Shown here: one piece after another, positions 11,601 through 58,818 of the stretch
How the letters are laid out: each line of letters begins with the position of its first letter
How positions within the stretch are numbered: position 1 is the stretch's first letter
Source of the DNA: Siphonodentalium dalli
Taxonomy: Eukaryota > Mollusca > Scaphopoda > Gadilida > Siphonodentaliidae
Assembly (NCBI GenBank): GCA_032622095.1
Contig: CP136061.1
Span: 84,046,324-84,110,323 of the forward strand
Length of the DNA stretch: 64,000 nt
Reading direction: 5' to 3'
Notes under the pieces: model-generated
Told to the model about the DNA's origin: nothing
Databases searched by the model: none
Seen by the model: the letters and a program-made list of their open reading frames with translations, nothing else
Made by a program: the position numbers and the translations under genes

Positions 11601-13881
11601 ATAAGTTTGAAAAGTCCCACTGAAACGGAAGAACTATATTTCGAAACTGTGTGATTCGGTTCTCCGATTATGTTATCAACACACAAATCAAAATGCACAT
11701 CACACGCATGGCAAGTCAGACATAAGAGTTCAAATTTGCTCCAATTTTGACAAGTTGCTTGCGAAAATTGTCAACAAAACTACCGTTCTGATCCTCCATT
11801 ATGTCATTAAGTTTTTAGTGCGGGAATTGTTCTCAAAGCACATAGGAAACTGGACTTTGGGGCGATCGGTTTTCGCCATTTTGTTCGGAAAACCCCGCGC
11901 TATATATAGAAACGGAAACTAGAATACCCAGCGGACAATGCCGGAATTCTTCGGAACCTGACTTCGGCTTTCAGTTAAGTAAACAAAATATAAAAACAGC
12001 GATGTTGGTGACAATCAACCGGAATATTCTATGCGTAATGTAACATGAAAGTTAGATTATTATACACCATTATGACCATAAGATGTCTCTCTTTCCGATG
12101 TATATAGCATCATGTATTGATTTATTAAGTAAATCGAGTAAAATACAACACAGAGTCCCGCCACAGATCGTGGGCGTAAGTCGTGTCATAAGAGACTATA
12201 CGGGACGAACTCGGACTAAAGACCGGCACCTCCATCCCAATATCTTAGCCGGCTTTAGTACGAGAAGACTTGGACTAATTGGACGATAGCACTTTTCAGA
12301 GTCGTACACTGATTTTCCGGGGTTTTTTATGTAGATTTTATTGTCCTTTTTGAAGGCTGATGGAATGTCACCTTGTTCCCAGAAATATTGAAATAACAGA
12401 TGGATGCATTTAACCATGATGTCCCCAGATTTAGTGATCATTAGAGGATGAATATCATCCGGTCCAGGAGCAGAACTGTTGTTCATGGCTTTCAGAGCAC
12501 TCAGCACTTCACTTTCACTGATATCACTATTTTCTGGTTTTTCTATGTTATTTTTGAGAATATTATTGTTGTCAGTGATGTTAGTTTTAATTGAAGTATT
12601 TATTACTTCTTTCCACTGCATGTCAAAACCTGATGTATCTGCGTGTTTACGGTCAATGTGCACATATTGCAGTCTTTTTGATATGTCTTCATCAGAACGT
12701 GCGTAGTCTTTATCAGCATTTTGAATTTTAATTGGCTGAATGGTGTTGTCTTGGTTGTGTTTATGATCGCTATTAAGTTGAATAAGTTTCCAGAAATCGC
12801 GTTGATTTGCTCTGCTTATTTTTTCACATGTTTGGTCCCAGTGTGTTGATTTTTCTTTCTCTATGGCTGATCGGAGTTCGCAAAGAGCATTGTCAAGAAT
12901 GGCTTTATTGTGTGGATCAGATCGTTTGTGGAACATCTTATTCGCTTTTTTACATTCAATTGATTTTAGTTTAATATCCTCGTTCCATACATGTTTTGAA
13001 TGTTTTGTGATGTGTTTTTTACCAATGTGGGTTTCTGCAGTGTTGAGAATAACTTTGCAGAAGCTGTCGTATTTGGAATCTGCGCCTTCAAATGTTTTGA
13101 ACTGTGTACACCAGTTGTTTAATTCGCCATTGATTGCAGATTTCCAGTCTGTCCAGTCACAGTTTTTGAAGTTCCATAATGTTTTATCTACGGATTGTTC
13201 TGAATCTTTGAGCACAAAATTTATAATGGAGTGGTCTGTGCGAACATACCCCTCCCGATCAATAAACCAAGTGGTTTCTACATTATCTAGACCACGTGAA
13301 AAAGTTATGTCAATAGCGCTATGGTATTCATTTCTTGTCCAAGTGTATAAGCCGGCATTGTGTGTTTTGAGGTTGTGGCTGTCTGTTATATTAAGTAGAG
13401 TTTTTCCCATACGAGCCGATTGAGATTTCCTATTTAGCTTGCAGGTATCATTTTGTATTTCCCAGGCAATGTTCCTACAGTTGAAGTCGCCCAGCACTAT
13501 GAGTCTACTGTTGCGAAATTTGTCCAATGCTAAATTAAGTTTGAGGATATCATTTATCTGTTTAGGCGGAATATATACATTGACGAGGACAAAACTGCCC
13601 AATGGATGCACTATTTCAGTCCAGATTGATTCGATGTCAAGTTGTGGATTGTCTATTTGTATAAACTTGATACCAGGCCTGATGATTGTGGCGACCCCAC
13701 CACCACGCTTGCCCGTTGTCCTATTTCGAAAAGCAGAGTTCCAATTTAAGAAGTTAATGGATTTATTTTTGTTCCACGTTTCCTGGATGCAAACTATGTC
13801 GACATTATTCTTCTTGACATAATTTTCCAAGAGAGTACAAGAAGTGTTGTATGAGTTAATGTTAATTTGTACAATTTTCAT
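8632..13881 (-). pseudogene. LINE-B ORF2: APE endonuclease, RT, RNase H (broken)
   Basis: The ATG is at 13881. The endonuclease has MKIVQININSYN, DIVCIQETW (Glu), KRGGGVATI, VLGDFNCRN and the terminal DHS block. The RT starts with SSAPGPDDIHP and reaches YRPIS, where a foldback element (10920-12277) interrupts it. It resumes with SLSSIIGKTFEKI, YIDFEGAFDSI and IGAPHGSVISPILF. A frameshift near 10465 separates this from the catalytic YSDD (10440-10451), a variant of YADD. A second frameshift near 9840 precedes the RNase H region (8632-9789) with FTDGSTFPNS, NNSAEIKGILLALKHIE, LCDSQLAI and HIGVKGNELADQAAK. All four RNase H acidic positions look present. Confidence 0.88.
10920..12277. mobile_element. 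Mutator-like foldback element, copy 1 (9-bp TSD)
   Basis: It begins TAGTCCAAGTCTTCTCG and ends with the exact inverse; the terminal inverted repeats run about 105 bp. It is flanked by ATTGGACGA on both sides (10911-10919 and 12278-12286), a 9-bp duplication typical of Mutator-like elements. The duplication encodes the RPI of YRPIS in the LINE-B reverse transcriptase. There is no transposase; the interior is non-coding apart from a 76-codon frame (11468-11698) of no recognisable kind. A second copy is at 29733-30666. Confidence 0.88.
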
Positions 13882-13897
13882 TTTGGCTAACTGGGAT

Positions 13898-15715
13898 TTA
13901 GAAGCACAGTTGGCTGCGTTTCAGCAGTAGGGTTTGATATTCTGTGAATTTAGGGCAAGTCCTTGAACGTGCATCATGTTTTCCTGAACAGTTTATGCAG
14001 CAAGGAAAAAGGCTGTTACAATCTTTTACATCATGAGAGCTGCTCGTACATTTGGCACATGTGGGTTTGTTCATACAGAGAGCTGAAATGTGACCAAAGC
14101 GTTGACATTTGAAGCAACGAATGGGTTTTATCTGATTGTATTGTTCGCACTGATACTGTTTGTCAAGAATGTTAACACCGTTTAACAAACATCTGTCAGT
14201 AAAATATTTGTCAGAGGCTGTGATTTTGATTATGCGCATTTGTTTGCCGGTGTCTGTGAAACAATATCTTTTAACTTCAGTTTTGATATTGTATTCATTT
14301 TCAATAGATTGTTGAATATCCTGAGAATCAATTTTAACGTTGATGTTTTTAACGATGATTGATTTGCCTTCCGAAGGACTATGGGCTATTAAAGTTCCAC
14401 CACTGTTGTTTAAAGCATTGTGAGGCCATTCCTGTTTGAGAAGTTTAGCAGATTATTTGTCTTTTACATGAACGGCAATTCCACCTCGGGGAAGGGAATA
14501 GGCATATTCTATATTCACTTGAGGCTTGAATTTATTAATCTCTTTCTTAATGCTAGAGGAGTTTTGAAAGAGTTTTGGTTCTGTGAGTTTGTCGATTATG
14601 ATGTTAGACTCTGACCCTTGTGACACTTTTACTTGACTGAGTTTGTCATCGACTTTCCCTGCAGAGATGATTGTCTTCTGTACACTGTTCACGTTCTTCC
14701 TGGTGGTGTTAGTTTTGGTTTTCTTCCCAGTCTTGATTGATTTTGGTGTCTCGATGTTAGAGGTAGGTGATTTGGTTTGGAGTGGTTTTTGTGGACTTTG
14801 TTTGGATTTGCATGTTTTTGATAGTGTCAACCACAGATTGTTGTTAGATTGCAATTGAGATATGTTGCAGAAAATACATTTGAAATTGATATTGTGTTTG
14901 TTGAGCTTTTTCTTGTCTGCCGCTTCAAAACTGGAACACTTGATATGCCAAGCTTGGTCGCAGAGATTATTGGTCCCACATGGACACTTAATTTTGCTGT
15001 TTACTATATCGCACTCTTTGCATAAGAAAGATCTCTTTTCTACGAGTTTATCCCGATTGTTCGATTCTCGAAATGTTTTGGATTTTAACAGGTTGGAACA
15101 CACATAGTGGGACCATTTGTCACATGCTAGGCATTGAATGCCCCTATCTTCAGGTGTCACGCTTTTGTCACAGACTGTACATTGACAGTTAGTAAGAAGA
15201 TCATCTATGTCAGATTCAGAGAAGGTATTTTCATTAATGACAGTTGAGTGTATGCTTTCTACATGCGGTGATGAACCTCCTTTATTGATAGATGTAGAGG
15301 AGTTTATGGCATCTGAGTAGCTAGCTTTCCTTGGAGAAATGATTTTAATTTCAGGAGTAGAGTAAATTTCGTTATCACTTCCTGGAGATTCTGGAGTGGC
15401 AGATTGAATGATCTGCAGCGTAATTGGGGTCCTGTTTCTGTTTTCACTTTCAGTGTAAAGTTTTGTGTGGCATGGGCCAGTTTTTAGTTTGGTGGTATCT
15501 GATACGACATTAGCACAGTGTGCATAGCAGGCTGCATCTTCAAGTTCAATGTTTGTTTTTGAGTTTTTTGTTTTTGAACTTTTGCCAGATTTTGGTGTTT
15601 CAACGATAGAATCAGGAATTGTTTTGACATGTACCTGTTTATCTTTCGATCTAGTATTGTATTTGTGATTTCCGCAATCTTCTCGAGGCGATAGAGCGTT
15701 GTTTTGTTTAGGCAT
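13898..15715 (-). pseudogene. LINE-B ORF1: PHD finger + CCHC zinc knuckles
   Basis: One frame of 606 codons from ATG 15715, interrupted by a single premature TAA at 14453-14455. The first 200 residues are Ser/Thr/Lys-rich and low in structure. A PHD-type Cys4-His-Cys3 domain follows (CQCTVCDKS, CLACDKWSHYVC, FLCKECD, WHIKC, FKCIFC). After the stop comes an RRM-like stretch (IIVKNINVKID) and then knuckles CFKCQRFGHISALC, CAKCTSSSHDVKDC and CCINCSGKHDARSRTC. The role in the family is binding the element RNA; the PHD could target chromatin. It ends 16 nt before the ORF2 ATG. Confidence 0.85.
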
Positions 15716-19396: not shown

Positions 19397-21292
19397 ATGT
19401 CAATATGTTTGAAAATGCCGAAGTCAAAATCATCTTACAAAGGACAGTCAACAAGTTCTGAAACATCGACTAGGCCTAAACAAATAAAATTTACATCTTT
19501 GTTTTGCGTCAGAGAAACCGACAATGACACTACAACTTCTAGTAGCGAACAAAACAACAATTCTTCTAGGACTTCTACTTCATTCACGACGCCAATCGTT
19601 CCACCGGCACCAGAACTTGAAATTGAACCTCAGGACGAACGGCTCGAACCTGAACCTTCACTGACTTCAACCTCGTCAGATCAGACAGTGAGAAGTCAAC
19701 CAAATCAGCCGGACAATTACACATTTCCTCAGCGTGTATTCAAAAAATCTGATCTGTCTAATGGCAATGATGACGGAGATCCCCCAGACCGGCCAGATGA
19801 TCATGCTGATAAATCAACTAAGAAAAAAGATTCCAAGCAAGCTGGTTCCAGAAATGGCGGTGGTTGCACTACCTCGAATCGAATGATGCGGTGCTGTGCT
19901 TTTACTGTTCGAAGGCCGACCAGATGAATTTATCATGCGAATCCAAAGGTGAATCAGCGTTCGTCACTGATGGCTTCTACAATTGGAAACACGCTACCGA
20001 ATCTAAAAAAGGATTCAACAAACACGAACATTCCAAATATCATGCGCTTGCGGTTCAAATGGTGACCATTCCGAATACGTGTGAGGATGTCGGCGAACTG
20101 CTCTCACAAACACACAAGGTTGAAAAGGAACTCAATCGGACAATCTTGATGGCACTCCTGACAACCACCAGATACCTCGCTCGTCAAGGGATAGCCTATC
20201 GCGGGCACAAGGAGATCGACTCAAACTTTCTACAACTGTTAAAACTCAGGTGTGACGACACTACCGGTATGGACAGTTGGTTAGAACACAAACGGAAATA
20301 TATATCATCTCAGATCCAAAACGAATTTCTCGAAACGATGGCCTTAAATGTGCTTAGGCAGGTGGTGGCTGATGTCAGGACATCACCGTTTTATTCGATT
20401 CCCGCGGACGAGACGACAGATGCATCCAACAGACAGCAGCTAGTCGTCTGCTTAAGATGGATCGATGATCAACTGCATCCACAGGAGGACTTTGTCGGAC
20501 TATATGGAATCGAGAGGGCGGACGCCAAAATGATCAGCAGTCTTATCCGGGATGTCCTTGTTCGATCACACATGACACTAGCGAAATGCAGAGGACAGTG
20601 CTATGATGGGTGTAACACCATGTCGGGACAAAAGAATGGAGTTGCGGCGAACATCAAGCGTGATGAACCAAGAGCGTTATACACTCATTGCTATGGGCAT
20701 GCCCTGAACCTGGCATGCAGCGATGCTATAAAGAAAAGTAAAATAATGGAAGACGCATTAGATACCGCAAATGAGGTGACTAAACTCGTCAAGGCATCTC
20801 CAAAACGGGAGAGCGAATTTAGACACATCAAGGATGACCATACTCAAGCAAGTCAAATGAAAACGCCAAATGTCCGACTCTTATGTCCAACTCGATGGAC
20901 TGTACGCCACAAATAGCTGGATAGTATTCTCGAACTACAAATCGTTGTTAAACTTGTGGGACTGGACACAAGCAACAACTGACAACACAGAGACCAAGGC
21001 CAAGTTCCAAGGCGTTGACTGCCAGATGAAGAAGTTCGATTTTTTCTTTGGTGTCTCTCTTGCTACACTAGTGCTCTCCCATGCAGAATCTCTCAGCGAG
21101 ACACTCCAGAAGCGCAGCCTGTCCGCATGTGAGGCTACCATGACAACAACGGCATTGTCGTCCACCAGGACTGATGATGCATGGAAGTTATTCTGGGCCA
21201 AAACATGTAAATTGGCGAAAACCATCGAGGAAGTAGGGAGCCTGTGTTACCCCGACGGCGACAAGCACCTAAGAGGCTAGAGGAGTGTCTAG
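19397..21292 (+). pseudogene. hAT transposase, first exon (broken)
   Basis: An N-terminal Ser/Thr-rich region is followed, after a frameshift near 19865, by a TTF-type zinc finger (WLHYLESNDAVLCFYCSKA ... GFNKHEHSKYH). The catalytic core follows, with IPADETTDASN (DDE Asp), LAKCRGQCYDG, THCYGHALNLACSD and LCPTRWTVRH. A TAG at 20914-20916 and a frameshift near 20935 break the core. FDFFFGVSLATLVL follows. A further shift near 21255 leads to APKRLEECL and a donor AG|GTATGT at 21293. This is the ZMYM/SCAND3-like hAT lineage. Confidence 0.82.
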
Positions 21293-23288: not shown

Positions 23289-23499
23289 TAATTAATATTT
23301 ATAACAAAATTTGATCAAATTGTGTCTCATGTAGTACTATGTAGACATCCGAATTGTATCCATGACATGTATTTCTCTTTTTCAGAACATTACTGGTCAA
23401 CATGTATGTACATGCTATATAGCATGTACTATTATCAGTATTATGGGCATGATATATCTAAATAAATTATTATTATTGAATATTATTATTTTATTATAG

Positions 23500-24098
23500 G
23501 TGGAACAGCAGCTGCTGAATTCCCGGATACCGTGGATGATCACTTCAGACGAATCTACTTCGAGGTGATCGATCTTGCCACCACGTCGATTACCGGACGC
23601 TTTACCCAGGCAGACTATGAAATATATTCGAAATGTGAGAACCTCTTGTTGGCGGCATCAAAGGGTGAGGAGTATGACGCTATGCTTCATAGTGTCTGTG
23701 ACTTTTTCGGCGACGACTTCGCACGGACAACTCTAAGCACTCAGCTGGGAATCTTCAAATGTGCTTATGATGGTGACTCAGAAACAATTCATGATATTTT
23801 CAAATATTTCCAGCAATTAGGACGCGGCCAATGGCAGTTAATGGGAGAAGTCGTGAAGGTAGTGCAGCTTCTGATGGTGGCTCCTGCCACAAACGCAACC
23901 AGTGAACGTTCTTTCAGTACATTGCGGAGAATAAAAAGTTATCTCCGATCGACAATGAACCAATCTCGCCTGAACCATTTGATGATTTGTGACATTTACA
24001 ATGAACGATTAGACATGCTTGACATGAAGGCGATTTCGAATGAATTCGTTCACAGTTCTGAGAGTCGTTCAGAAGTGTTTGGTCTATACAAACTATAA
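23500..24098 (+). pseudogene. hAT transposase, second exon with dimerisation domain
   Basis: The acceptor is ttattatag|GTGGAACA, joining CTA G to GT GGA in phase 1. It encodes DDHFRRIYFEVIDLATTSI..., then the hAT C-terminal dimerisation block LLMVAPATNATSERSFSTLR and NQSRLNHLMI. This exon is fully open, but the first exon is broken. The intron (21293-23499) was only about 470 bp before the MITE and Helitron arrived. Confidence 0.85.
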
Positions 24099-31403: not shown

Positions 31404-32917
31404 TTAGGATATCACATTTTCTAAAGATTCATAAAAGGCTTTGAGTCTGGCCCTCTTTGTGGCCCTCCTCGATGGGACGACACTTATAGTCTGCAGGTCT
31501 GACGGAAGACTCAGAAGAGTACTATTTATATCTAAGTTAGTCATCCTCGCTGCCATCTTGCATCTAACACTTTCTGATTGGTTGAGCACATTGTTACGAT
31601 AATTTGTAACATTTAAATTTTGAGACACATCTGGTGAGGACTTGCTTGTTTTGAAATTGTCACAGATTTGTTCAGCAATTTCTTTTCCCTCTTCATCCAT
31701 ATGAGTTATAAAATCAGCATGACTCTTATGGCGTTTTGAACTTGTCTCAGCACTAGAACTGTCCCGAATACAATCCAATTTATCTTTACACGTTTTCTCA
31801 CTGGAATTTTCAACACGTTCTTCATTGTTGAAATTATAATTTTCATTGTATTTTGTCAAAAAAGAGCAGTGAGAAGTGCTCCTTTTTAATTTCAATTTTT
31901 GTTCATCACTAGAATCAATCAGAACACAGTTAGGTTTATGTTCTGCCTCATGTTCATGTTCGGAGTCAACATACTCGACACCTCTCTTCTTATGAATATG
32001 TTTCGGCAATTTACCTGATGTCCTTTTTGATTTGGAATAAACCTTCCTTCTGGTATCGCATGACTGAAATTTCATCCTATCTCTGTGATAATACTCTGGA
32101 CATTTTAAGCATGTTCTCGGTGAAGTGTTCAGGAATCTGTTGAAACATGTCAGGTCTCCAGAAAGTTGTCCTGGTTTCGACTTAACAATAGGCCTCATTG
32201 CTCTTGGCTTAATGAAGGAAATAAAGTCAGCTAATTCTGAGAAACTACTGTGGTCAGAATACGGAACTATATACACATGAGAGTAATGATGATACGGTTT
32301 GCGTTCCAGAATATGATAGAGAGCTGTAGGCCAAATGACTATGGAATCAGATTTCGTTCTTTCCAAAAAATGTTTTGACACTGCCGATTGATTTTTTATG
32401 ATGATACGGCACTGCGACTCGCATTGTTCATCTTTGAAAACATCCGGCAACTGAAGAATTTCGGCTATTTCAAGCACAGATTTCGGTACACATACCCACT
32501 GTTTGAATTTTAAGCCAATTCTGGCAAATAACTCCTCTTTTCCAAGATTTCGAGAAATGATGAACACCGTTTTATGAGGATTAGAAGAGATAATTTCACA
32601 GATTTTATCAGAAGCTTCTCCTCGACTTGGAAACAAACATTTTGGTTCGCAGTATGTATTATCGACATAGAGCATATCGATGTCTTTTAGTCTGTTCTGA
32701 ATAACATGTTCCATATTGATTTTCAGGTTTGTGGACCATCTAAAATCGCCAGAATGTAAGATCGATCCAAAATATCCTTCGAAGAGGAACATGACGGCAC
32801 CAGGACAATGATCAGCATCCAGGAGAGTCACAGTTATCGTCTGCCGTCCATCACTGTCGAGCGGAATCACGTGACCTCGCGATAACTCTAAGGAGTGAAT
32901 CAGCTCCCGAGACACAC
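31404..32917 (-). CDS. DCLRE1B: DCLRE1B/Apollo (SNM1B 5' exonuclease), exon 2
   Basis: Metallo-beta-lactamase/beta-CASP DNA nuclease; in vertebrates it processes telomere leading ends and crosslinks. The exon starts after the acceptor tttgtgtctttacag. It carries LLDADHCPGAVMFLFEGYFG (metal His, residue 99 of the joined protein), SILHSGDFRW (metal Asp, 120), YVDNTYCEP, and the beta-CASP end VPYSDHSSF (His about 285). After residue about 310 it is a Ser/Lys-rich, poorly conserved tail ending at the TAA 31404-31406. The joined protein is 566 aa, close to the family's about 530. The TRF2-binding YxLxP motif of vertebrate Apollo is not visible. All core residues are intact, so likely functional. 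Confidence 0.9.
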
Positions 32918-33839
32918 CTGTAAAGACACAAAATGTGGTGAAAATGTCTTGTGCTGAATATCAATTTGTTATTTTGTGTATACTGCACTTAATTAATGAC
33001 TTGCGAGAAAACTATATCCAAAAGTATTACTGGGAAAATCCTAACAGAAATAAATTCTACAGATTGCTGTCACTGCTAAATATAAGTATGTTGAAGAGTA
33101 AGTAAGAGTGAGAATTTACTTAAAATTATCATTTAAATAGTTACCATGACAAGAGTAATTTATATTATATATCATATAGAATTTTTTTTTTGCGTCAAAC
33201 AATTTAAGAATACACTCATAGCAATAGCAGCCAATTCTGATGCTTGATAGTTTCAAATCTATCTAGGGCACCTATTATACAAAAATTTAATATATGCATA
33301 TGATACTTCATAGTACCCAATATAGACCTCAGCTTCAAAAGCACACCTTTTTCAGTTATCTTCCCCTGTTCTATCAAATGACATCTGACCAGGGGCCCGG
33401 AGCAGCACCAGGGGCCCGGAGCAGTCTTGATTACAGAAAATAGCGGATGCACCTTGATTCTGGAATTTAGAACGCGTTTGCAAATGGCTGAGTGTTATTG
33501 GGTTCGCATCAATTGTGCCATTATTCAAAAGTATGTATTAGTTTAGAGGGTTTGTATTTTAAAATTAATATGGTGCAATTTTGTTCACTTCTTTCAAACA
33601 AAGAATTAGCGTAACTCGTGAGAATTCAGAATAGTGAATACCTCGACTAGTAAGAGGTTAATGAGTAGTCTATTATAGCCGTGGAGTCGATGAGATCATC
33701 TGGACCATGGGGATGTATCGGGTGATTGAATCATATTTTCAAGTTCCCAAGCAGTATATCACACATAAATTTACATTCACATTTTACATTGAGTACCACC
33801 AAGTTGGTACTGCATAATACCAACATTTGGTACTACATA
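32918..33839. other. DCLRE1B intron, 3' part
   Basis: Intronic, non-coding. Contains the acceptor-side polypyrimidine tract (32918-32935) and no recognised repeat before the foldback element at 33840. Confidence 0.6.
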
Positions 33840-46879: not shown

Positions 46880-47325
46880 ATGCCTGAATTTAATGTGTCT
46901 GATATTTGCAGAATGAGGTCCCCAGTGGGTGAATTTAATGACGCTATCCCACATAGTGGGGTAGCATCACAATATTCACCTTCTGGGGACCTCATTCTGC
47001 TTAGCCCTCATCTTCTAGGAAATATCAAAAGTCTCAAATTAACATTGTTTGTAGTAAAAAATTTCCTGGTCAGTTTCTATATCCCCTAATTGCAGAATAT
47101 ACATGTAAATTGCATTATCAAGGTGACTAAAGGTGAACATCACAAACTTCAACTTGGGAACTTCAAGCTATCCTAGCTCTCCCATAGCAATTGAGGCCTA
47201 AGCAGAATGAGGTCACCAGAGGGTGAATTTGGTGAGGCTAGCCCTCTATGCAGGATAGTGTGACTTAAGATTACCCTCTCTGGACCTCATTCTGCAAGCG
47301 GCAGACACACTATTTCATGGTGCAA
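46880..47325. mobile_element. Two-hairpin element, complete
   Basis: Left hairpin 46909-47000 with near-perfect arms (gcagaatgaggtccccag) and apex CCCACATAGTGGG; right hairpin 47205-47296; spacer with 'ctatatcccctaattgcaga'. Confidence 0.8.
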
Positions 47326-47989: not shown

Positions 47990-48225
47990 ATGCTCAGTTA
48001 GTAGCGTAACATTGTCAGTAATGACATGGATGTAATGTGAATTACACACGCACGCATTCAGTCAGTAATGACATGGATGTAATGTGAATTACACACGCAC
48101 GCATTCAGTCAGTAATGACATGGATGTGATGTGAATTACACACGCATGCATTCAGTCAGTAATGACATGGATGTAATGTGAATTACACACGCACGCATTC
48201 AGTCAGCAACTATATGGATATGGTG
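47990..48225. repeat. 47-bp minisatellite, about 4-5 units
   Basis: Unit attcagtcagtaatgacatg + gatgtaatgtgaattacaca + cgcacgc. The last, diverged unit (48195-48225) overlaps the end of the proposed UQCC6 exon 2. Confidence 0.88.
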
Positions 48226-48285
48226 AGCACTTGCACTCTCTTTTTCCATCTTCTTTACTTCTTCTGCAAACATTTCATCAAGTCC
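48199..48285 (-). CDS. UQCC6: UQCC6/Brawnin, probable exon 2
   Basis: The acceptor ttaaattgcag opens a phase-0 exon of 28 codons and a stop: GLDEMFAEEVKKMEKESASA then HHIHIVAD. Phase and strand fit exon 1 (53211-53306), giving a 60-aa protein, near the family size (about 60-70 aa). The charged helix after the membrane segment is as expected. The last about 8 codons and the stop lie in a diverged minisatellite unit. Primary sequence similarity to the family is weak in this tail, so this exon is a proposal. Confidence 0.45.
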   Translation of the reverse strand, partial: GLDEMFAEEVKKMEKESASAHHIHIVAD

Positions 48286-50039
48286 CTGCAATTTAATCGA
48301 ACAAAATTAATGCATGGTACTACACCCCCTGTATCCGGCTTCAGGTACATGTATGTTGTGGATACCACAAATCCGGTGTAATAAAAATAGTTTACATATC
48401 GACACGTGGTAAGTACATGTATATGACAATTTTTCACAAAGATATGAAAATTACCAAACTACTCTTTCTCGTCCGTAGATTTAGTTTGTATTCTCATGTT
48501 CAGAGATGAATTTATCAACTCAAAAATGTAGCGATTACATTATATTTCATCACAAATGTTGTCTCACACTAATTGGTTAGGGGTTTCGTCGGTAATTTAG
48601 GCTTCATTCTTGTACATAATTCCCCAAGTAGTGCTGCATTTATAGAATATTATATTCCCCAGACCCATTTTCTTACAGACATTGTTTATAAAAGCTGAAC
48701 AAGTACAATTGTTTTGACTTTGTAGAACGGTGCTGGTGCATGTAGTGGGTAAAGTGAGCGCGGGTGTGACAACTTGTTAATGGTACCACAACTTCGGTGT
48801 AGCGACTCCCTTTAGTTCGGTGCCTAATATAGGAAATACTATTTTAAAATCCCCTCACAGCGAGAAATGAATGTGAAAATGACACGTTATAGGCCCACAC
48901 AGGTATACATGTACTTTACTTGCTATTATTATCATCGTCATGATTTCATTCCGGTATACTGCACCATTATAATATAGTATTTCCAGTTTCCTCTGGTCTT
49001 CACATGTCTAATAAACCATATGCATCCCATTGCAATGCTTTGATGGCCATATATTTCAAATATCGGGAAGAACATCTATATTATAGACACGTGCATTGTC
49101 AAGATATAACCGATGTTGAGCAAATAATGCCATGTAGTTCAATCGCCATATCATCCCTTGATTATAAACTGCAAACAGTATACGCTCAATTTGGTTCCGA
49201 ATTAGGGATACATGTATTTTGGGAAACTGAAATATGGTCGCTCAGTCATGCAGGAAAAGATACTTTAATGTTCACTTTATTTGTTTCTCCCAGGCATAAA
49301 CACAATTATGTCAGTACTAGTTAGTAAGTTTCACCATGCCTTACATAACTGCATGCATGCATGGCAGTGGTTATATTAATGTAACCAAATACATTGATAT
49401 AATCGGATCACTGCAATGCGATAGCATGAACCAAACTCTCCCCTAAGTAGGAACCAAATGGTCATAATGTTGTAAATTGTACACGTAGGTGTATATTCCT
49501 CTGCCGTAAAGTAAATACTGTTTGTTGTATATAGTTTCAGTGATATATGGCTCCAAAAATTGCAATAAAGAGGTGGCTTACATGCACCCCCCCACCTCAG
49601 TGATGCATGATGTACTTACATGTATGGGGATTCATTACGCTGGTTCTGCATGGTGCCTTACATGTATATCGACAACTCTGGGACTAACGGATCAATCTAT
49701 ATATTAATACTGTATATTTACATGGGAACCAACACATTGACAAATCCATATTATCATATATGATTTGATCATGACTCCAAAAGTTGAGATAAGAAAGGTT
49801 GTGCTTATGTACACCAGAATAAGTCCCCCCCCCCCCCCCCCCCCTGTCTTTAAATCTACCTCAAGAACGAGTAAAACTGCAACTGTCAGAACATTTATAT
49901 ACAGGTAGGTAAATATTGTCGTCAATTCACGCATCAATGTGTGCGATTTAAAACAGAGCAAAAAATAATAGGTTGCAATTTAAATACCAGTAAGGCACCA
50001 TGAAATTGAGTAACTTGTTTGGACCACATGGTAATTGCA
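48286..50039. other. Intronic or intergenic, nothing recognised
   Basis: Would be UQCC6 intron if exon 2 is right. Contains a C homopolymer (49826-49845). A 106-codon plus-strand frame (49004-49324) has no recognised domain. Confidence 0.45.
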
Positions 50040-50043
50040 TTAA

Positions 50044-50553
50044 ACCCTTTGAGTGCCAGGGGCCGATCTCATCGGCCCTAATTTATGGTCTGTAGAGTGC
50101 CCTTTTTTCAGATTGTTTTTATTTGGGTTGAATTTTTTTTGGGTATGCTTAAGCATGCTATAGCGAATTTAAAAACAAACTGGATAAAACCTTTGGGGCA
50201 TGTTATAACTCAAAACTATCACCAAGTATTCATAGTAATAATTTTGATGCCCATGATAAATGTAAGATTCCCTGGCGCTAAACCTACAAAATAAGTCTGT
50301 TAGGTAAGGTATATGAGAAAATGAATTCTCCAGGAAAAACACCAGTACAAAACTAATCCTTTGAAATAAGTCTGTTGAAGAATATAAGAAAAAATTATTA
50401 AAATTGTAAAAAATAATAACAAATGAAAAATTGTTAGGCCAATGCATTCTCTTATATATGCGAGGTGACCTATGGTCGACTCGCATATATAAGAGAATGC
50501 ATTGGCACAGGGTATATGGGTTGTTACAAAAATCGGACTTGGCACTCAAAGGG
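50044..50553. mobile_element. TTAA hairpin element, CCCTTTGAGTGCCAG type, 510 bp
   Basis: TTAA at 50040-50043 and 50554-50557; ends ACCCTTTGAGTGCCAGG and TTGGCACTCAAAGGG; hairpin 50438-50515. The interior matches 54060-54300 in reverse orientation. Confidence 0.85.
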
Positions 50554-50557
50554 TTAA

Positions 50558-51226
50558 AAGAAATTTGTGTTCTGAGAAGTGTTCTGAACACTTGATTTTA
50601 GCCAATAGCTCCACTCAGCTAACTGAACAAGCTAAACAAGAGTATCGTGGGCGTGGCTACGCCCGTTAGTTTACTTGTAAATTGTTATTAAATCAGGTGA
50701 ATTAAGTTAAAAAAAATGACTATATAATTGGAAGAAACACATATTTGAACTTGGTCTGTATTATTTGCTGAGATACATATAGCAACAGTGGTTCAGATCA
50801 AATTATCCAAACTGGAGTTATCAGTCGGAAACCAAAACGTTATGAAATGAGACAAATACTGAGTCAAAAAGGGCTGTAACGCATGTATAAAATAAGTGTA
50901 TGGAACCTATATTCGAAAGTGGCATGTATTCTTGTCTAATAATGACACAACGCAACTTTGGTTCAAATATAATGATCCAAACTGGAGTTATCGGTCAGAA
51001 AACAAAATATTTAATTGATGGATGAACGGACAGATGGTTATACCAACGATACATGTACATGTAGGTACCCACTGGAAATAACTCATATTTTGGTGCCTGT
51101 CAAAATGGTAGGCACCAATTGGTTGTCATGACGGTCATTCATAAATTTGTGCCAGTCATATATATTTTCAAAAAGAATACAATATCTGTTACAGGGCACT
51201 TTTATAGGCATTTAATAAATCAATTA
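50558..51226. other. Non-coding with dispersed mollusc-type repeat
   Basis: Two blocks around 'ccaaactggagttatc' (50808, 50970); no gene. Confidence 0.5.
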
Positions 51227-52972
51227 CAGTAAAACCTCTCCAAACCGAACACCCTTCGGACCAACCCTTTTGTTTGGTTTATAGAAAATAGCACTACGAT
51301 CGGAATGTATTGATGTCATTGTCGAAGAACAACTGACTCATTATTGATTATTTAAAATTTATTCAATAAAGTACCATATCAAATATAAATAAAAGGTCAG
51401 CCGACCACAGTGTCCCCCGAAAACATGGCAAGTCGACGCCGCTTTGTTAAAGAAATTAAAAAATATGTTGAAATGTTCTAAGTCGTAAAGAAATAATTTT
51501 TCCGTCATCTATATACATGTTACACATCTCCAATATGTTGGTAACATTACTCTGAAGTTTCAAATATCTACGATCAAAACTGTAGGAGGAGTTGATTTCA
51601 CCATGAAGGTACCCTCATACAGAAAATTATAAAAAATGTTTTTCAAAGTCGAAAGGCCCATAACTCTGGGAAAAATCATTGGATCAAACTCAAATTCGAC
51701 CTTGACCTGTATTTTGATATGAACGACCCACAAAAAAAAACAGATTTCCAATTAAACAATCCAAACTTGAGTTTTCATCCAGAAACCAAAGAAAAAACAA
51801 GAATATTTAATTTTTCTATTGTCGAAAAAAGTCCATAACTCTAGGAAAAATCATCGGATCAAACTCAAATTCGAACTCATCCTCTATATTGATATGACTG
51901 ATCCACATACATTAAAGGATCCAAACTTGAGATATCATCCGGAAACCGAAAAAGTGAGAAATTTTCAAAGTGAAAAAAAAGTTGAAAAAAGGGAAATAAC
52001 TCCTTAAAAGAATATCGGATCAAACCCAGAATTGCAGAGCACCTGTGTTCTTGGTTGAGACACCTACATACCAAGTTTCAATCAAATCATTACTGGAGTT
52101 ATTACTCCGGAGGGACGGACGCGGCTGATTACAATAGTCGTCCGAAAATTTCGGGGGACAATAACAATAGATAAAACATCATGTTAAAATATGAATTAAA
52201 AACATGGTATATTAAGACATAATACATGTATAGATAAAACAGGACACATGGAAACGATAAATGTTACAGTGATTGAAAATGTCACTTAAAAATGTTGCAT
52301 CTTTAGTATACATGTAGTTGATTCGTACTCTTAAATAATCGTAACTATTAATTAGCGGTATTTTGTTCGGCGACATCTTTGAACCGGATTATAACAACAG
52401 GTGTCTGATTAGATAACTGAATGCTTATTTAACACATTGAGTGAACAATGGTGACTTCACAGCACTGACATTTTGTTTTCAAATCAATCATTGTGCTGAA
52501 TTGGACTCTTATTTTTACGACTTTTACGACTTCTGTCCAAACTAAACAAAATTAGCTAAATTTACACGATGGTAGTGTATTGTCACCAGTACAGTTTTAA
52601 TTAACCTGTCACACCAAATGAGCCATCACGAAAATGGCACTCAGAGTTGATTGTATAGACTAGAAATTTAAAATCATTAAAGATACCCAGTCTATACACT
52701 ATTTAAAGCCAAAACAAGTTCACCATCAAGTATGTCAAATCAACAGAATGTGCGTTTGATTGTTATCGCTTTCCACGTTCGGATTTCGGAGGTAAAAATT
52801 AATGTATTCGTTTTGGACTAGAAAAGCCGTCCGATGTTCGGAATAGAGAGTTTCCGGATTACAGAGGTAATTTTTAGTGAGAACACACTTTGGTGAATTC
52901 GGGACCGGACAATTTGGTCGGTATGGAGAGGGATTCGGTTTATAGAGGGTCCGGTTTGGAGAGGTTTTACTG
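51227..52972. mobile_element. Pogo/Tigger-like non-autonomous element
   Basis: TIR CAGTAAAACCTCTCCAAACC at both ends, flanked by TA (51225-51226, 52973-52974). Sub-terminal repeats of 'aaaccgaa' and 'ggattacagagg' occur near the right end. 1,746 bp without a transposase; 750 bp of it is the nested TGTCCCCCG element. Confidence 0.85.
51411..52160. repeat. TGTCCCCCGAAAA-ended repeat, copy 2 (nested)
   Basis: Same ends and shared 'gtcagccgaccacag' left context as copy 1. The interior includes two 'cataactctgggaaaaatca' blocks and 'gagggacggacgc'. Nested in the pogo-like element. Confidence 0.7.
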
Positions 52973-53054
52973 TACCAGCACTAAACCTAAAAAAAGTAAT
53001 AGAATCTATGTGAAGAAGTTTCTATAGAAATTTGTTAAAAAAGAAACTTTCAAG

Positions 53055-53190
53055 AGAAGATTAGGCCAAAGCAGAATGAGGTCCCAGAAGGTGAATTTAG
53101 TTATGCTAGCCCGCAATGCGGGATAGCGTCACTAAATTCACCCTCTGGGTACCTCATTCTGCAAATGACAGCCACACTAAACTCAAGACT
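53055..53190. mobile_element. Two-hairpin element, right half, at UQCC6 splice donor
   Basis: Hairpin 53072-53163 (gcagaatgaggtcccagaagg) and tail gccacactaaactcaagact. Its edge is about 20 bp from the UQCC6 exon 1 donor. Confidence 0.75.
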
Positions 53191-53210
53191 TCATGTGGGA
53201 TAAATCTCAC

Positions 53211-53306
53211 CTCCAGAGGCTTGTAGTACCAATGAACGGTCTGAGAACCGAGTAACATGGCCGACAGGGCTGACATCTGGAACAACAGGTAGCGAGTCCA
53301 CCTCAT
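53211..53306 (-). CDS. UQCC6: UQCC6/Brawnin (complex III assembly microprotein), exon 1
   Basis: The ATG at 53306 opens MRWTRYLLFQ, MSALSAMLLG, SQTVHWYYKPLE, then a donor GAG|GTGAGA at 53210. The family signature YL(x9)AM(x2)G(x3)VHxYYxP of Brawnin (human C12orf73) is matched without gaps. Residues about 6-22 form the single membrane segment for the mitochondrial inner membrane. The family protein assists cytochrome b/complex III assembly together with SMIM4. If not spliced, the frame reads 19 more residues and stops inside the hairpin element. It lies 154 nt after the SMIM4 stop on the same strand. Confidence 0.75.
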
Positions 53307-53460
53307 CTTGTAGTCATAGAAATGCTTGAGTGAAATTTAGTCTATTGTTCGTAAGTGTAGCCTATTGCTTGTTATTCCTGTCTAATGTTCGTTATTGTCG
53401 CTTTCTTCTAGTAAAACTCTCGATATGAATTTTGCTGTCTTTGTTGTGCCTCTTTTAGTT
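53307..53460 (-). promoter_or_regulatory. Intercistronic spacer SMIM4-UQCC6
   Basis: 154 nt between the stop of SMIM4 and the start of UQCC6. The only ATG on the coding strand is at 53317; it opens a 4-codon frame (M-T-T-R) whose TGA overlaps the UQCC6 ATG. An AATAAA overlaps the SMIM4 stop (53460-53465) and could act as a poly(A) signal, the main argument against one shared mRNA. Confidence 0.6.
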
Positions 53461-53540
53461 TTATTGGGATTGTTGTTGTTGTTGTCTTTGTTGTACTTCT
53501 TTTAGTCTTCGTTCTAGTTCTTTGCGTTTGTAGACATTGT
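53461..53540 (-). CDS. SMIM4: SMIM4/UQCC5, last exon
   Basis: The acceptor tttttgtttcttcag joins a phase-1 exon: the T left by the first coding exon plus AC gives Tyr. NVYKRKELERRLKEVQQRQQ and QQQSQ follow, then the stop. This reproduces the family's FY-x-VYRRK...RRL tail in sequence and position. The Gln run is a CAA repeat. The joined protein is 77 aa (human about 70). Confidence 0.82.
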
Positions 53541-53900
53541 CTGAAGAAACAAAAACAACAAAACCTGCACCCGTCAGAAAAAAAACTTTAATCTGACATT
53601 AATAACTGCATGACATAAAACCTGAGTGTTTAAATTCAGCATTATGTGAGTACAATGCTTTATATTGTGTTCATGAATACAATGTGTTAGGTAGTGTCCA
53701 GTCGAATAAATATGACTGCTTCTAACATATAACAAGCTAGAAACTACATTATTGTACACAAATTTCATGCCTTGGGGTAGAATAGCTAGATTGTGTCTTT
53801 TCAACAGCAAGCAGGACTATTCCCGCCAGAATTACAACAATTCTGGCATCGTGGCAATTTCTGGCCAGATTGTGACTTCAGCTGGAGGGTAATAGTTTTA

Positions 53901-54346
53901 GCTCTTTTCAGTGCCAGGTCCGATTTTTGTATCAACCCATATACCCTGTGCCAATGCATTCTCTTATATATGCGAGTCGACCATAGGTCACCTCGCAAAT
54001 ATAAGAGAATGCATTGGCCTAACAATTTTTCATCATTTGTTATTATTTTTGACAATTTTAATAATTTTTTCTTATATTCTTTAATAGACTTATTTTGTAG
54101 GTTTAGTGCCAGGAAATCTGACGTTTTTCATGGTCATCAAAATTATTACTCTGAATACTTGGTGATAGTTTTGAGTTATAACATGCCCCTAAGGTTTAAT
54201 CCAGTTTGTTTTAAAATTCGCTATAGCATGCTTAAACATACCCAAAAAAATTGAACCCAAAAAAATCTTTAAAAAAAAATAATTTAGGGACGATTTTACA
54301 GACCGTAAATTAGGGCTGATGAGATCGGCCCCTGGCACTGAAAGGA
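53901..54346. mobile_element. TTAA hairpin element, GTGCCAGG type, in SMIM4 intron
   Basis: Right TTAA at 54347-54350; the left flank is degenerate. Ends TTTTCAGTGCCAGGTCC and CCCCTGGCACTGAAAGGA; hairpin 53948-54022. Confidence 0.75.
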
Positions 54347-54350
54347 TTAA

Positions 54351-55674
54351 AGACAATAGCCGGCGATAGTCGGGTATTAAATGGTCAAAACTACTTTCCG
54401 ACATGTATTAATGGTGCTTCATCCAAATAAATAAAGGACAATATGAGTATATACATTGAGTTCATTGAGTCTCAATGTACAAATGTATATAATCATTCTC
54501 GATATTTTACCCAAAGGCAGTCAACATGAATACACATGTATACTATAATACGTATATACATCAATGGTGTTTTGTTTTCCAAACACATAATGAGCCATGG
54601 TCAATGGTTAAAAACTCGCAGGTACATGTAGCTCCAGTGACCATCACGAGGCCCCAACGGGCCACAGTGCCATGCATCCATGGTGTATTTGTTTTAATGT
54701 CTGCATAACGAATCCTCGTTGACAATCACAACACCTCCATGTTACATTTGTGTTTACACACAGCCTCACCTCTCCTACATTATATAGGATATTCCAATGA
54801 TTTATGAGCTGAAAATCACAGTGCAAGATATTCGCCTACATGTATACGCACATGTCTTAGATAATGCAAAACCATTACAATTTAAATGGAATTATCAAGG
54901 GTTTTATTCAGTGCACCAATTTTTTGTTGAAAGTACCTGACTAGTGAACAGGATATCTACATACACGGCGCCATCTACACCCAATCGACGGCCTATACAT
55001 GTTTGAGAAGGGTCTCCCCACTGGGCTAATGAACAAATGTTATTATTTACAAGTCTATTATCAAGTACCATATTTACCAACTTTGTATGAGTTACTACAT
55101 TTTAATAGTAAATAAATGCAGCAAAAAATGCTCGAACCCTCATTGGAATCACTTTGGTAGGGTGATCAATAGAAAGGGAGAATAATCTTGCTCAAAGTAG
55201 TTATTGTTACAAAGAATATAGCCAAATTGGCAACATCCACTGTCATATATTAATTAAATGTAGTGACACTCGATGATGAAATTGATTTCATTCGTTTATC
55301 GCCAATAGTTGCATCCTATCGAGAAGTATATATTTACAATCGAGCATACATGTGTAATTCAGACGATGTTTTCTATGGAGTGGTACAGTCCATTTGCTTG
55401 AGATTTTCTACGATGTTAGTAGAATGCTAAATTTCTCCAGTACATGTAGGCATAGTGCCTGAATCCTAACATATCCCGAACAAGTCCATAATATGATAAT
55501 AATGATCCGTTTCTATACCGGTATGTGAACATTGATTCTATTCTGATGTGAGAAAACAATCAATCTCTTAATTAATGGAGAATATGAACAACAATCACTG
55601 AACATTTCACAGTAAATTGCATGCCAATCTGAAAAAGGATCATGCTTAAACACTGCTTTGTGTACTAAAAATAT
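54351..55674. other. SMIM4 intron, nothing recognised
   Basis: AT-rich with frequent 'acatgta' words. No open frame or repeat could be supported. Confidence 0.5.
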
Positions 55675-56090
55675 TTTCTAACATTTGCAGAATGAGGTGA
55701 CCAAATTTTGAATTCAGTGATGCTACCCTGCACACCGGGCTAGCAAAACACAAATTCACCCTCAGGGGACCTCATTCTGCTTAGGCCTCAATTTCTGGGA
55801 CATATCTATTTGTCACAAATAAACATGTTTTATTACTTTTTCCCTTCTGGGAAGTTTTTATAACCCATAATTTTCAGAAGATAAAATGCATAATCGAGAT
55901 GACTAATGGGTAATATCACCATATTCAACTGGGGAACTTTAATCTGATCCTAGGTCTCCCATAGTAGTTGAGGCCAAAGCAGAATGATGTTCCCAGAGGA
56001 AGGAATTTTGTGACGATAGCAGGCAGTGCGGGATACCATCACTAAATTCACTCCCTGGAGACTCGCTGTCCCAAGTTCTAGAGTCAAATG
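55675..56090. mobile_element. Two-hairpin element, diverged
   Basis: Left hairpin 55688-55779 (apex CCCTGCACACCGGG), right hairpin 55980-56070, spacer with 'gatgactaatgggtaatatc'. Confidence 0.7.
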
Positions 56091-56600
56091 TGACAAGAAT
56101 AAATTACTGTACTAGACTTATTTAAACTTTTCAATATATCATGCACCTACAAGTACACATGTATGTTAAGCCTAAAAGATGCCTTTCCCAAAATCCCATC
56201 AGCCCAATCCCATGAACAGGTATCGGATAATTTCATAAACAGTGCCCATACATAGGCGTCAATGAGCGTTGCTAGATTATTTTCACATCTAGGCTCATTA
56301 TACAACAGTGCACATACTGTCATACATTAAATTTTTATGGGGAATTGGGCTGGGGTAATTCAATATTGGCTGTGTCTGCAAGAGTGATGCGATTTATGAT
56401 CCAAATCTTATTGATAAACGAGTGATCGAGGAAGGAAAATACCATTGTTGCTGGACCAAAATTTTCTCTTGCCTAAAGATTTGACAAATTTTTTTTGTTG
56501 TAAATTTAATTGAGGGTATGGTATAATTGGAGAAATTGAAGGAAATTCTTATTTTTTTTTCATTTGTTATACAATAATACAAGAGCATCGCTAGAGCATG
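56091..56600. other. SMIM4 intron, nothing recognised
   Basis: No gene or clear repeat. Confidence 0.45.
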
Positions 56601-56604
56601 ACCA

Positions 56605-57040
56605 AAATATACCCTAACCCTAACCCTAGAGTGTGACCAAAATATACCCTAACCCTAACCTTAACCCTAGAGCATGACCAAAATATACCCTAACGGTTCT
56701 AACCCTAACCCTAGAGCATGACCAAAATATACCCTAACCCTAACCCTAGAGCATGACCAAAATATACCCTAACCCTAACCCTAGAGCATGACCAAAATAT
56801 ACCCTAACCCTAACCCTAGAGCATGACCAAAATATACCCTAACCGTAACCCTAGAGGATGACCAAAATATACCCTAACCCTAACCCTAGAGCATGACCAA
56901 AATATACCCTAACCCTAACCCTAGAGCATGACCAAAATATACCCAGGGGCGCCGGAAGCATCCAAGGGCATGGGGTGGGGGCAGAGCATGACCAAAATAT
57001 ACCCTTTAGCCAGAGCATGACCAAAATATACCCTTTAGCC
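56605..57040. repeat. Telomere-like 35-bp minisatellite
   Basis: Units of ccctaaccctaaccctag + agcatgaccaaaatata, about ten copies, interrupted at 56945-56985 by a GC-rich segment. Each unit holds two to three CCCTAA hexamers, the metazoan telomere motif in C-strand orientation. Confidence 0.88.
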
Positions 57041-57724
57041 ATTTTCAATTGTTGTACTACAAAATACAATAACAAAGAAAATCTGATGTTCCCCTAATTT
57101 CAATGCCAAAATGTGGTCTACATGTATGTCGAAAACAGGTCATAACTCATGTGAAAATATCTGCATATTGGCATAAGAGACATCAGAAAATAATATAGCC
57201 ATATTAATAGCTAAGTAGTCCAAAGGCATGGGATGGAATTGGTGAAAATATGGCTCCAAACAAATTCACCAGTACATGACAATATTTGGACCGATTTAAA
57301 CCAAATTTGGTGCGCTGACTCGGGGTACCCTTGGCGGAATTATAATAGTGTTAGTTTTTGTAATTTTGTTATTTAAATTTTTTTTTTTTTTTTAATTACT
57401 TAAAAACAAATATTTAATTATTTTGTTTTGTTATTTATTTAATTATTTTATTTAGTTTTTGTTTTGTTAGATTGAGCAAGGAATTAAATCTAATTTTTTT
57501 AATTTTTTTTTTAAGAGTGAATATTTTTTCGAAAAAGGGCCATAACTCAGTTAAAAATAGTCTGATCAAACCCATATTCGAACTCGATCTGTCTTTTACG
57601 CTGAGAAATTCATATACCGAAATCGGTCGGGAAACTAAATTTTGCGATACCGATATCTTGCCGATATCACATATATCGACCCGATTCGATAGCCGATACC
57701 AATAATCGGTACATCACTAATAAA
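57041..57724. other. SMIM4 intron with homopolymer tracts
   Basis: T-rich runs (57378-57393, 57495-57512) and a 'gggccataactcagttaaaa' dispersed repeat (57537). Confidence 0.5.
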
Positions 57725-58137
57725 ATGAGATGATAAAGTGGGACACTTTATTGATCTCTTTTTAGAACAGACCATTCAGGCGATACCATATCGCGATAGA
57801 GATCATTAGGGTGTTCCTATAGTTATGATCCGAATACCGAATGTTCCAGATTGATTGTTTGTATTCTTTTATTACATAGATGTACATGTAGTTATGGGCG
57901 ATAATGAGTCTCATTGTTTATTTGTGACACAATTACACAATACAATATCTGGTCTCTGTTAACAGTAACCAATTTTGTATGTTAGCTAAACAACCACACG
58001 TGTTTAGACCATAAAATATTCAAAATATTATCAATATTAATCGATAGACGCATTTCTAATATCTTCTAATATCTTCTTCTAATATTGTATACCCGGTAAC
58101 TATAAACACATGTTTACAAAGAGATAGACCATCTTTA
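57725..58137. mobile_element. TTAA MITE 'AGATGGATTATCTC', right part
   Basis: It aligns with the right 370 bp of 36426-36945 (gaccattc, gtctctgttaacagtaacca, acatgtttacaaagagata) and ends accatct + TTAA. It ends about 90 bp from the SMIM4 donor. Confidence 0.7.
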
Positions 58138-58225
58138 AATATATTGAAATACTGCCCAGCACAACATGATACTGGTATTATCATAGAAATTGATGTTGCC
58201 ATGCGTGTTACACAAATATACTCAC

Positions 58226-58379
58226 AGAAATTGACGTTGCCAACGTGCCAGTTAATCATCAGAAACTCGATGCCTGCTCCAATCATGAAATACAGAGGAA
58301 GGAACCGGAATACTCCGAATCTTCGCTTTCCTGGGATCTTGTAAATAATATCGCTTAATTTCTGTATAAGTTTTCTCAT
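58226..58379 (-). CDS. SMIM4: SMIM4/UQCC5 (complex III assembly microprotein), first coding exon
   Basis: The exon runs 58226-58408, from acceptor aatttctttgcag to donor TTCT|GTGAGTAT. The ATG at 58379 is in A-rich context. The protein begins MRKLIQKLSDIIYK, then IPGKRRFGVFRFLPLYF, MIGAGIEFLMI and NWHVGNVNF. The PGKxRFGxxRFLP block is the signature of SMIM4 (UQCC5). Residues 27-43 form a membrane span; the family sits in the mitochondrial inner membrane and helps mature cytochrome b. Codons upstream of the ATG are open to the acceptor, so a longer start is possible. All three ATGs in this exon are in frame. Confidence 0.85.
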
Positions 58380-58428
58380 TGTATCAGGTGAAAATCTGTT
58401 TAAGAAACCTGCAAAGAAATTGGTTTAA

Positions 58429-58818
58429 CCCTTTACCCAACAGAACGGCCCTGTGCCAATGCATTCTCTTATATATGCGAGTCGACCATAGGTCGCCTCG
58501 CATATATAAGAGAATGCATTGGCTTAACACATTAAAAATTATAAAATTGTTAAAGAATGTAAGAAAAAATGGTAAAAAGTGTTAAAAAAGATTTTTTTAG
58601 GCCAATGCATTCTCTTATATATGTGAGGCGACCTATGGTCGACTCGCATATATAAGAGAATGCATTGGCACAGGGCATAACTGTAACTATCACAATGTGG
58701 TCAAGGAGCCGGTTCCAATGATATCCATATTTGTATGGTTCTATTGAGACAGACCGAAGATATTTTAGGCTGTTGAAGCTTTATTTGGCCGTTTTTGGCC
58801 GTTTTGTTGGGTAAAGGG
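58429..58818. mobile_element. TTAA hairpin element, CCCTTTACCCAACA type
   Basis: TTAA at 58425-58428 and 58819-58822; ends CCCTTTACCCAACAGAACG / GTTTTGTTGGGTAAAGGG; two hairpins (58454-58525, 58598-58675). The left edge is about 20 nt upstream of the SMIM4 acceptor, so it borders the branch-point zone. Confidence 0.88.

What the first reader, a model, noticed from the sequence alone, without database searches (positions are those of the whole stretch)
53211..58379. Possible bicistronic SMIM4/UQCC5-UQCC6 locus in a mollusc-like genome (sloth1/sloth2 layout)
Seen: SMIM4 (77 aa over two exons) ends at 53461 and UQCC6 starts at 53306 on the same strand, 154 nt apart. Known: in Drosophila the homologous pair sloth1/sloth2 is translated from one transcript, and both proteins act in complex III assembly. 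Inference: the same coupling exists here, outside insects, with a wider spacer. The exons are too short to appear as long ORFs, so annotation pipelines could well miss both.
Basis: partly seen in the sequence, partly recalled or inferred. Interest (0 to 1): 0.88.

Follow-up and report, generated by a model that had tools for sequence, protein, structure and literature searches.

The report
Animal SMIM4–UQCC6 gene pair, likely bicistronic
Two tiny genes whose proteins help build mitochondrial respiratory complex III sit 154 bases apart in a large animal genome, probably on one shared messenger RNA, an arrangement already reported in flies, a choanoflagellate, a sea squirt and lamprey.

Summary
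On the minus strand a two-exon, 77-aa SMIM4/UQCC5 (58379-58226, 53540-53461) matches Pfam PF15114 (93.2 bits, cut-off 27), and UQCC6/Brawnin exon 1 (53306-53211) matches PF14990 (45.7 bits, cut-off 27). In the 2.23-Gb genome each family has one match over its cut-off, both here, so the linkage is not chance. I propose exon 2 at 48285-48199 (60-aa protein), but its acceptor is mediocre and Pfam does not favour it over decoys. A shared mRNA is the most likely reading but untested: no RNA was available, and an AATAAA overlapping the SMIM4 stop keeps separate polyadenylation open. The layout outside insects is not new: the 2022 eLife Sloth1/2 paper reports it in choanoflagellate, sea squirt and lamprey. 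Differences from the fly: a 154-nt spacer instead of 5, A at -3 of both starts, a four-codon mini-ORF overlapping the UQCC6 start, a tail duplication in the spacer, and an intron after the first stop. Verdict: new member of a known kind. That the animal is a mollusc was not established.

The parts
58226..58379 (-). SMIM4/UQCC5 coding exon 1 (51 codons plus 1 base; ATG at 58379). A candidate 3' splice site at 58410-58409 would start this exon at 58408, implying a non-coding 5' exon upstream that was not looked for further.
   Evidence: PF15114 match; donor at the 94.4th percentile; upstream acceptor at the 95.3rd percentile.
53541..58225 (-). SMIM4 intron, 4685 bp; 50.6% covered by sequence repeated locally
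53461..53540 (-). SMIM4 coding exon 2, with TAA stop 53463-53461
   Evidence: PF15114 match spans the junction (protein residues 6-66); acceptor at the 99.6th percentile
53460..53465 (-). AATAAA hexamer overlapping the SMIM4 stop codon: a possible poly(A) signal and the main basis of the rival reading
   Evidence: 88 AATAAA on the minus and 79 on the plus strand of the window, so about 0.2 expected in a stretch of this length (my arithmetic)
53307..53460 (-). Intercistronic spacer, 154 nt, stops in all three frames, no local repeats; it opens with a diverged, frame-shifted second copy of the SMIM4 tail-coding DNA (53462-53432)
   Evidence: 27 of 31 bases identical, offset 47 nt, 0 of 1000 dinucleotide shuffles of the spacer side reach the score (42; best shuffle 34)
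53303..53317 (-). Four-codon mini-ORF (MTTR, stop) whose TGA overlaps the UQCC6 start as ATGA: a possible termination-reinitiation site
   Evidence: could be chance
53211..53306 (-). UQCC6/Brawnin coding exon 1 (32 codons, membrane segment), ending at donor GAG|GTGAGA
   Evidence: PF14990; donor at the 99.8th percentile
48286..53210 (-). Proposed UQCC6 intron, 4925 bp, phase 0; an inverted-repeat element abundant in the region begins within about 20 bp of the donor
48199..48285 (-). Proposed UQCC6 exon 2 (28 codons and TGA 48201-48199); a 47-bp minisatellite (48014-48206) starts in its last codons
   Evidence: Acceptor only at the 77.1st percentile, 13th of 836 candidates on a combined score, not favoured by Pfam over decoys, 24.1% overlapped by local repeats: probable, not proven

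Best explanation
The locus is the animal SMIM4 (UQCC5)-UQCC6 (Brawnin) pair, kept together from an old arrangement and most likely transcribed as one capped, spliced, bicistronic mRNA: a possible non-coding 5' exon, SMIM4 exon 1, a shared middle exon carrying the SMIM4 end, the spacer and the UQCC6 start, then a UQCC6 3' exon. SMIM4 is read first. UQCC6 is read by ribosomes that resume scanning after the short SMIM4 ORF or pass its start, probably helped by the mini-ORF whose stop overlaps the UQCC6 start. Both products are inner-membrane assembly factors for newly made cytochrome b of complex III. Shown here: the two families, coordinates, one over-cut-off place per family, orientation, spacing. 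Inferred: one mRNA, UQCC6 exon 2, the translation mode, and function (from the human and fly orthologues).
For: Pfam matches over curated cut-offs. One over-cut-off place per family in 2.23 Gb, adjacent on C1. A 154-nt same-strand spacer in which no donor and no acceptor passed my thresholds, and only a weak AG (52.5th percentile) just before the UQCC6 ATG. SMIM4 exon 2, spacer and UQCC6 exon 1 lie in a 691-bp island (53195-53885) free of local repeats, while 38.4% of the window and 50.6% of the SMIM4 intron are repeated locally. The homologous pair is bicistronic in Drosophila, with similar architecture reported in choanoflagellate, sea squirt and lamprey (PMC9681215). Human SMIM4 and C12ORF73 depend on each other and act with UQCC1/UQCC2 on new cytochrome b (PMC8719881, passages).
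Against: No RNA, protein or ribosome data. AATAAA overlaps the SMIM4 stop, whereas past the proposed UQCC6 stop the first ATTAAA is at 46939 and the first AATAAA at 46725, over 1.2 kb away. Unlike the fly, both AUGs have A at -3 and four other AUGs lie between them, so leaky scanning of the fly type is not favoured by context. Two moderate acceptor-like sites lie inside UQCC6 exon 1 (53276, 53240). A junction about 250 nt after the SMIM4 stop could expose the mRNA to nonsense-mediated decay if UQCC6 were not translated (general knowledge, not tested). UQCC6 exon 2 is not favoured by Pfam.
Confidence: 0.72

Rival explanations
1. Two adjacent but separate genes: SMIM4 is polyadenylated at the AATAAA overlapping its stop, and UQCC6 has its own promoter in the spacer or upstream within the SMIM4 intron. 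Their closeness is only ancestral linkage.
For: Canonical AATAAA at 53465-53460. In the Sloth paper a 'linked' line can also mean adjacent separate transcripts (Figure 1C legend).
Against: The sequence after the hexamer is A-rich with little T/GT-rich content (by eye). About 0.2 such hexamers are expected by chance in a stretch this long. It lies at the junction of a tail duplication, so it may be recent. A promoter plus 5' UTR would have to fit in about 130 nt or in a repeat-rich intron. No promoter scan was run.
Confidence: 0.18
2. An operon-like pre-mRNA resolved into two mRNAs: alternative polyadenylation after SMIM4 plus splicing or spliced-leader trans-splicing just before the UQCC6 ATG.
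For: The UQCC6 ATG is directly preceded by AG; the spacer length is compatible with trans-spliced operons (general knowledge); an AATAAA is present.
Against: That AG is a poor acceptor (52.5th percentile). Whether this animal uses spliced leaders was not tested.
Confidence: 0.08
3. A decayed or chance copy: one or both ORFs are pseudogene fragments.
For: SMIM4 has a diverged, duplicated tail and the UQCC6 3' end adjoins a minisatellite.
Against: Open, well-scoring frames with splice sites and no other over-cut-off copy in the genome. Loss of either fly peptide causes lethality (PMC9681215 abstract).
Confidence: 0.02

Closest known systems
Drosophila sloth1/sloth2 (CG32736/CG42308)
   Same: SMIM4 orthologue first and UQCC6 orthologue second on one strand, different frames, similar sizes (fly 79 and 61 aa; here 77 and a proposed 60 aa).
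   Different: Spacer 154 nt here against 5 nt; SMIM4 start has A at -3 here, against ACACATG in the fly; a mini-ORF overlaps the second start; a donor interrupts the UQCC6 CDS here. One transcript is shown in the fly (cDNA, RT-PCR) and only inferred here.
Lamprey, sea squirt (C. intestinalis) and choanoflagellate (Salpingoeca urceolata) sloth1/sloth2 orthologues
   Same: Similar bicistronic architecture reported outside insects.
   Different: Their sequences are in a supplementary file; the cap on supplementary files was 0 and I did not read it, so no detailed comparison was made.
Human SMIM4 (chr 3) and C12orf73/UQCC6 (chr 12)
   Same: Same two families; act together early in complex III assembly.
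   Different: Unlinked in jawed vertebrates; adjacent here.

Membership tests
SMIM4/UQCC5 (Pfam PF15114, UPF0640) | Match over the curated cut-off | tested here: met
   93.2 bits against 27, profile positions 4-64 of 67
SMIM4/UQCC5 (Pfam PF15114, UPF0640) | One membrane segment | tested here: inconclusive
   Best 19-residue Kyte-Doolittle window 1.58 at residues 24-42; no dedicated membrane predictor was run
UQCC6/Brawnin (Pfam PF14990, DUF4516) | Match over the curated cut-off | tested here: met
   Exon 1 alone 45.7 bits against 27; 44.8 bits in the genome search
UQCC6/Brawnin (Pfam PF14990, DUF4516) | Complete ORF with the C-terminal part | tested here: inconclusive
   Candidate exon 2 at 48285-48199; Pfam score 45.6, while 7 decoy joins gave 43.7 to 51.3, four of them higher
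sloth1/sloth2-type bicistronic locus | Both ORFs adjacent, same strand, SMIM4 first, short spacer | tested here: met
sloth1/sloth2-type bicistronic locus | One mature mRNA carries both ORFs | not testable with these tools
   No RNA data on hand
sloth1/sloth2-type bicistronic locus | Leaky scanning past a weak first start (the mode supported in the fly; not needed for the layout) | tested here: inconclusive
   Sequence context speaks against it: A at -3 at both starts and four intervening AUGs; translation was not measured
Complex III assembly factors | Inner mitochondrial membrane, bound to UQCC1/UQCC2 and cytochrome b | not testable with these tools
   Known for the human orthologues (PMC8719881, passages)

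The most novel reading that the evidence does not exclude
Here the pair is coupled by termination-reinitiation rather than leaky scanning: the mini-ORF stop overlapping the UQCC6 start (ATGA) passes ribosomes on to UQCC6, and the exon junction inside UQCC6, about 250 nt past the SMIM4 stop, makes mRNA stability depend on UQCC6 being translated, which would hold the two partner proteins in balance. The AATAAA in the SMIM4 stop may add a SMIM4-only form.
Probability: 0.15. Interest if true: 0.5.

Novelty: new member of a known kind. Interest (0 to 1): 0.28.

Why it matters
It adds an animal with a large, repeat-rich genome to the species in which the SMIM4 and UQCC6 genes remain linked, which fits the published view that the linkage is ancient and was lost on the way to jawed vertebrates. 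It also gives a version with a wide spacer and an intron in the second cistron, where leaky scanning is less obvious than in the fly, so the translation mode could be tested. Both genes are made of exons short enough for gene finders to miss; whether they are annotated in this genome was not checked.

Tried and rejected
Search for further relatives: SMIM4 against genome contigs (88 pattern matches) and viral contigs (20) gave no relative by tblastn. PDB sequences gave nothing convincing for SMIM4 (2 matches, best E 0.55) and none for UQCC6 at E up to 1. Rfam over the whole window at gathering thresholds: no match.

Completing UQCC6: a strict filter missed the candidate; a looser one (665 candidates) showed it. 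It ranked 26th of 836 by codon score and 13th of 836 on a combined score, with a small training set of codons from this window. Pfam does not support it over decoys; exon 2 alone matches nothing. Reading through the donor instead gives a 50-aa ORF (46.1 bits) whose end lies in a dispersed repeat (about 53055-53191); I think it less likely because the donor is so strong.

Paralogy of the two peptides, reported for the fly at 27%, is not visible in this pair: 686 of 1000 shuffles of UQCC6 scored as high against SMIM4.

Taxon: PF14830 not found, uninformative because no control rang; Hox query unanswered.

Literature: 7 searches. Among the papers listed (capped lists) I saw none whose listing described this pair in a mollusc or annelid. 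The library holds open-licence PMC papers only, so this is weak. [quoted passage not shown] passages of PMC13303939 matched only in its reference list.

Corrections made: the 5' UTR acceptor was scored at a wrong coordinate (58411) and again at 58408. The mRNA model began at 58411, three bases early; this changes no ORF. One search failed on a file name and was redone. My notebook gives the tail duplication as 26 of 31; the alignment shows 27 of 31.
Full report
OBSERVATION. The sequence is as described. On the minus strand, 58379..58226 spliced to 53540..53461 encodes a 77-aa protein, and 53306..53211 encodes 32 residues ending at a GT donor; the spacer is 154 nt and the two frames differ by one. 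Pfam names them without ambiguity: PF15114 at 93.2 bits and PF14990 at 45.7 bits, both against a cut-off of 27.

CHANCE. The window is C1:84046324-84110323 of a 2.23-Gb, nine-contig genome. At E up to 10, PF14990 has six listed places there and PF15114 four; in each case only the place in this locus passes the cut-off. The searches work exon by exon and score only their best candidates, and no control genome rang over the cut-off, so absence elsewhere is likely rather than proven. Two single-copy genes of one pathway on the same strand 154 bases apart would arise by random placement with a probability near 3.5e-8 (my arithmetic). About 38% of the window is repeated locally, against none of SMIM4 exon 1, SMIM4 exon 2, the spacer or UQCC6 exon 1; the last three share a 691-bp repeat-free island (repeats sought only against the window and seven 10-kb stretches beginning 3.7 kb beyond its end).

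THE REST OF UQCC6. The finding stops at 53211, but that is a strong donor (99.8th percentile), 32 codons in. A phase-0 exon at 48285..48199 would complete a 60-aa protein with a charged tail; the fly protein has 61 aa. The case is fair, not strong: the acceptor is at the 77th percentile, the exon ranks 13th of 836 candidates on a combined codon and acceptor score, and Pfam gives 45.6 bits, within the 43.7-51.3 range of seven decoy joins, four of which score higher. I put it at about 0.6. A 47-bp minisatellite of 4.1 copies begins in its last codons.

THE SPACER. It opens with a diverged copy of the SMIM4 tail-coding DNA: 27 of 31 bases identical at an offset of 47 nt, 0 of 1000 shuffles as good. 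Because 47 is not a multiple of three, the second copy lies in another frame, in which it reads on to a stop at 53410-53408. My inference is that SMIM4 formerly ended there, about 101 nt before UQCC6, and that a duplication moved the stop upstream and widened the spacer. The AATAAA at 53465 lies at the junction of this duplication and may therefore be young. The UQCC6 ATG overlaps the stop of a four-codon ORF, 53317..53303. All of this is from one genome and could be partly chance.

MECHANISM. In the fly, both ORFs are on one transcript, the SMIM4 orthologue has a weak start context, and reporter tests support leaky scanning (PMC9681215, section 5 and Discussion). Here both starts have A at -3, and four further AUGs lie between them: two in frame inside SMIM4, one opening a seven-codon and one a four-codon ORF. 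Sequence context therefore leans towards reinitiation after short ORFs, if the mRNA is shared. A junction about 250 nt after the SMIM4 stop would be expected to attract nonsense-mediated decay where that pathway uses exon junctions, unless UQCC6 is translated; this is general knowledge and a prediction, not a result.

FUNCTION. In human cells SMIM4 and C12ORF73 depend on each other, bind new cytochrome b and act with UQCC1 and UQCC2 (PMC8719881, abstract and passages). In the fly, loss of either causes lethality, and the human cDNAs gave similar rescue results (PMC9681215, abstract and passages). Nothing functional was tested here.

WHAT IS KNOWN. The same paper states that choanoflagellate, sea squirt and lamprey orthologues show a similar bicistronic gene architecture, and that the genes are on different chromosomes in jawed vertebrates. 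The layout outside insects is therefore published. This locus adds one more animal, so it is a new member of a known kind with some differing details. The taxon is not established: the molluscan haemocyanin test was negative but had no positive control, and a Hox query did not complete.

VERDICT.

Noticed in passing
31407-32960 (-): Downstream on the same strand, a 518-codon open frame matching the DNA-repair metallo-beta-lactamase family PF07522 (34.8 bits, cut-off 22), by its look (recalled) a DCLRE1C/Artemis or SNM1-type gene or large exon.
   Followed up: partly
48014-48206: 47-bp minisatellite, 4.1 copies at 97% matches, beginning inside the last codons of the proposed UQCC6 exon 2.
   Followed up: partly
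53055-53191 and many other places: Short inverted-repeat, MITE-like element present many times in the window and in fetched stretches upstream, one copy beginning within about 20 bp of the UQCC6 donor.
   Followed up: partly
53950-54018, 58455-58523, 58601-58669: A second palindromic repeat of about 70 bp, also dispersed, in the SMIM4 intron and upstream of SMIM4 exon 1.
   Followed up: no
56591-56944: 35-bp tandem array (9.7 copies) in the SMIM4 intron whose unit contains runs of the 6-bp motif ACCCTA, the telomere-type repeat.
   Followed up: no
494-2938, 9831-10948, 12196-13920 (-); 19822-20913, 23466-24095 (+): Mobile-element remains: retroelement-like frames by eye, and frames matching DUF4371 (PF14291, 64.6 bits) and the hAT dimerisation region (PF05699, 28 bits).
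   Followed up: partly
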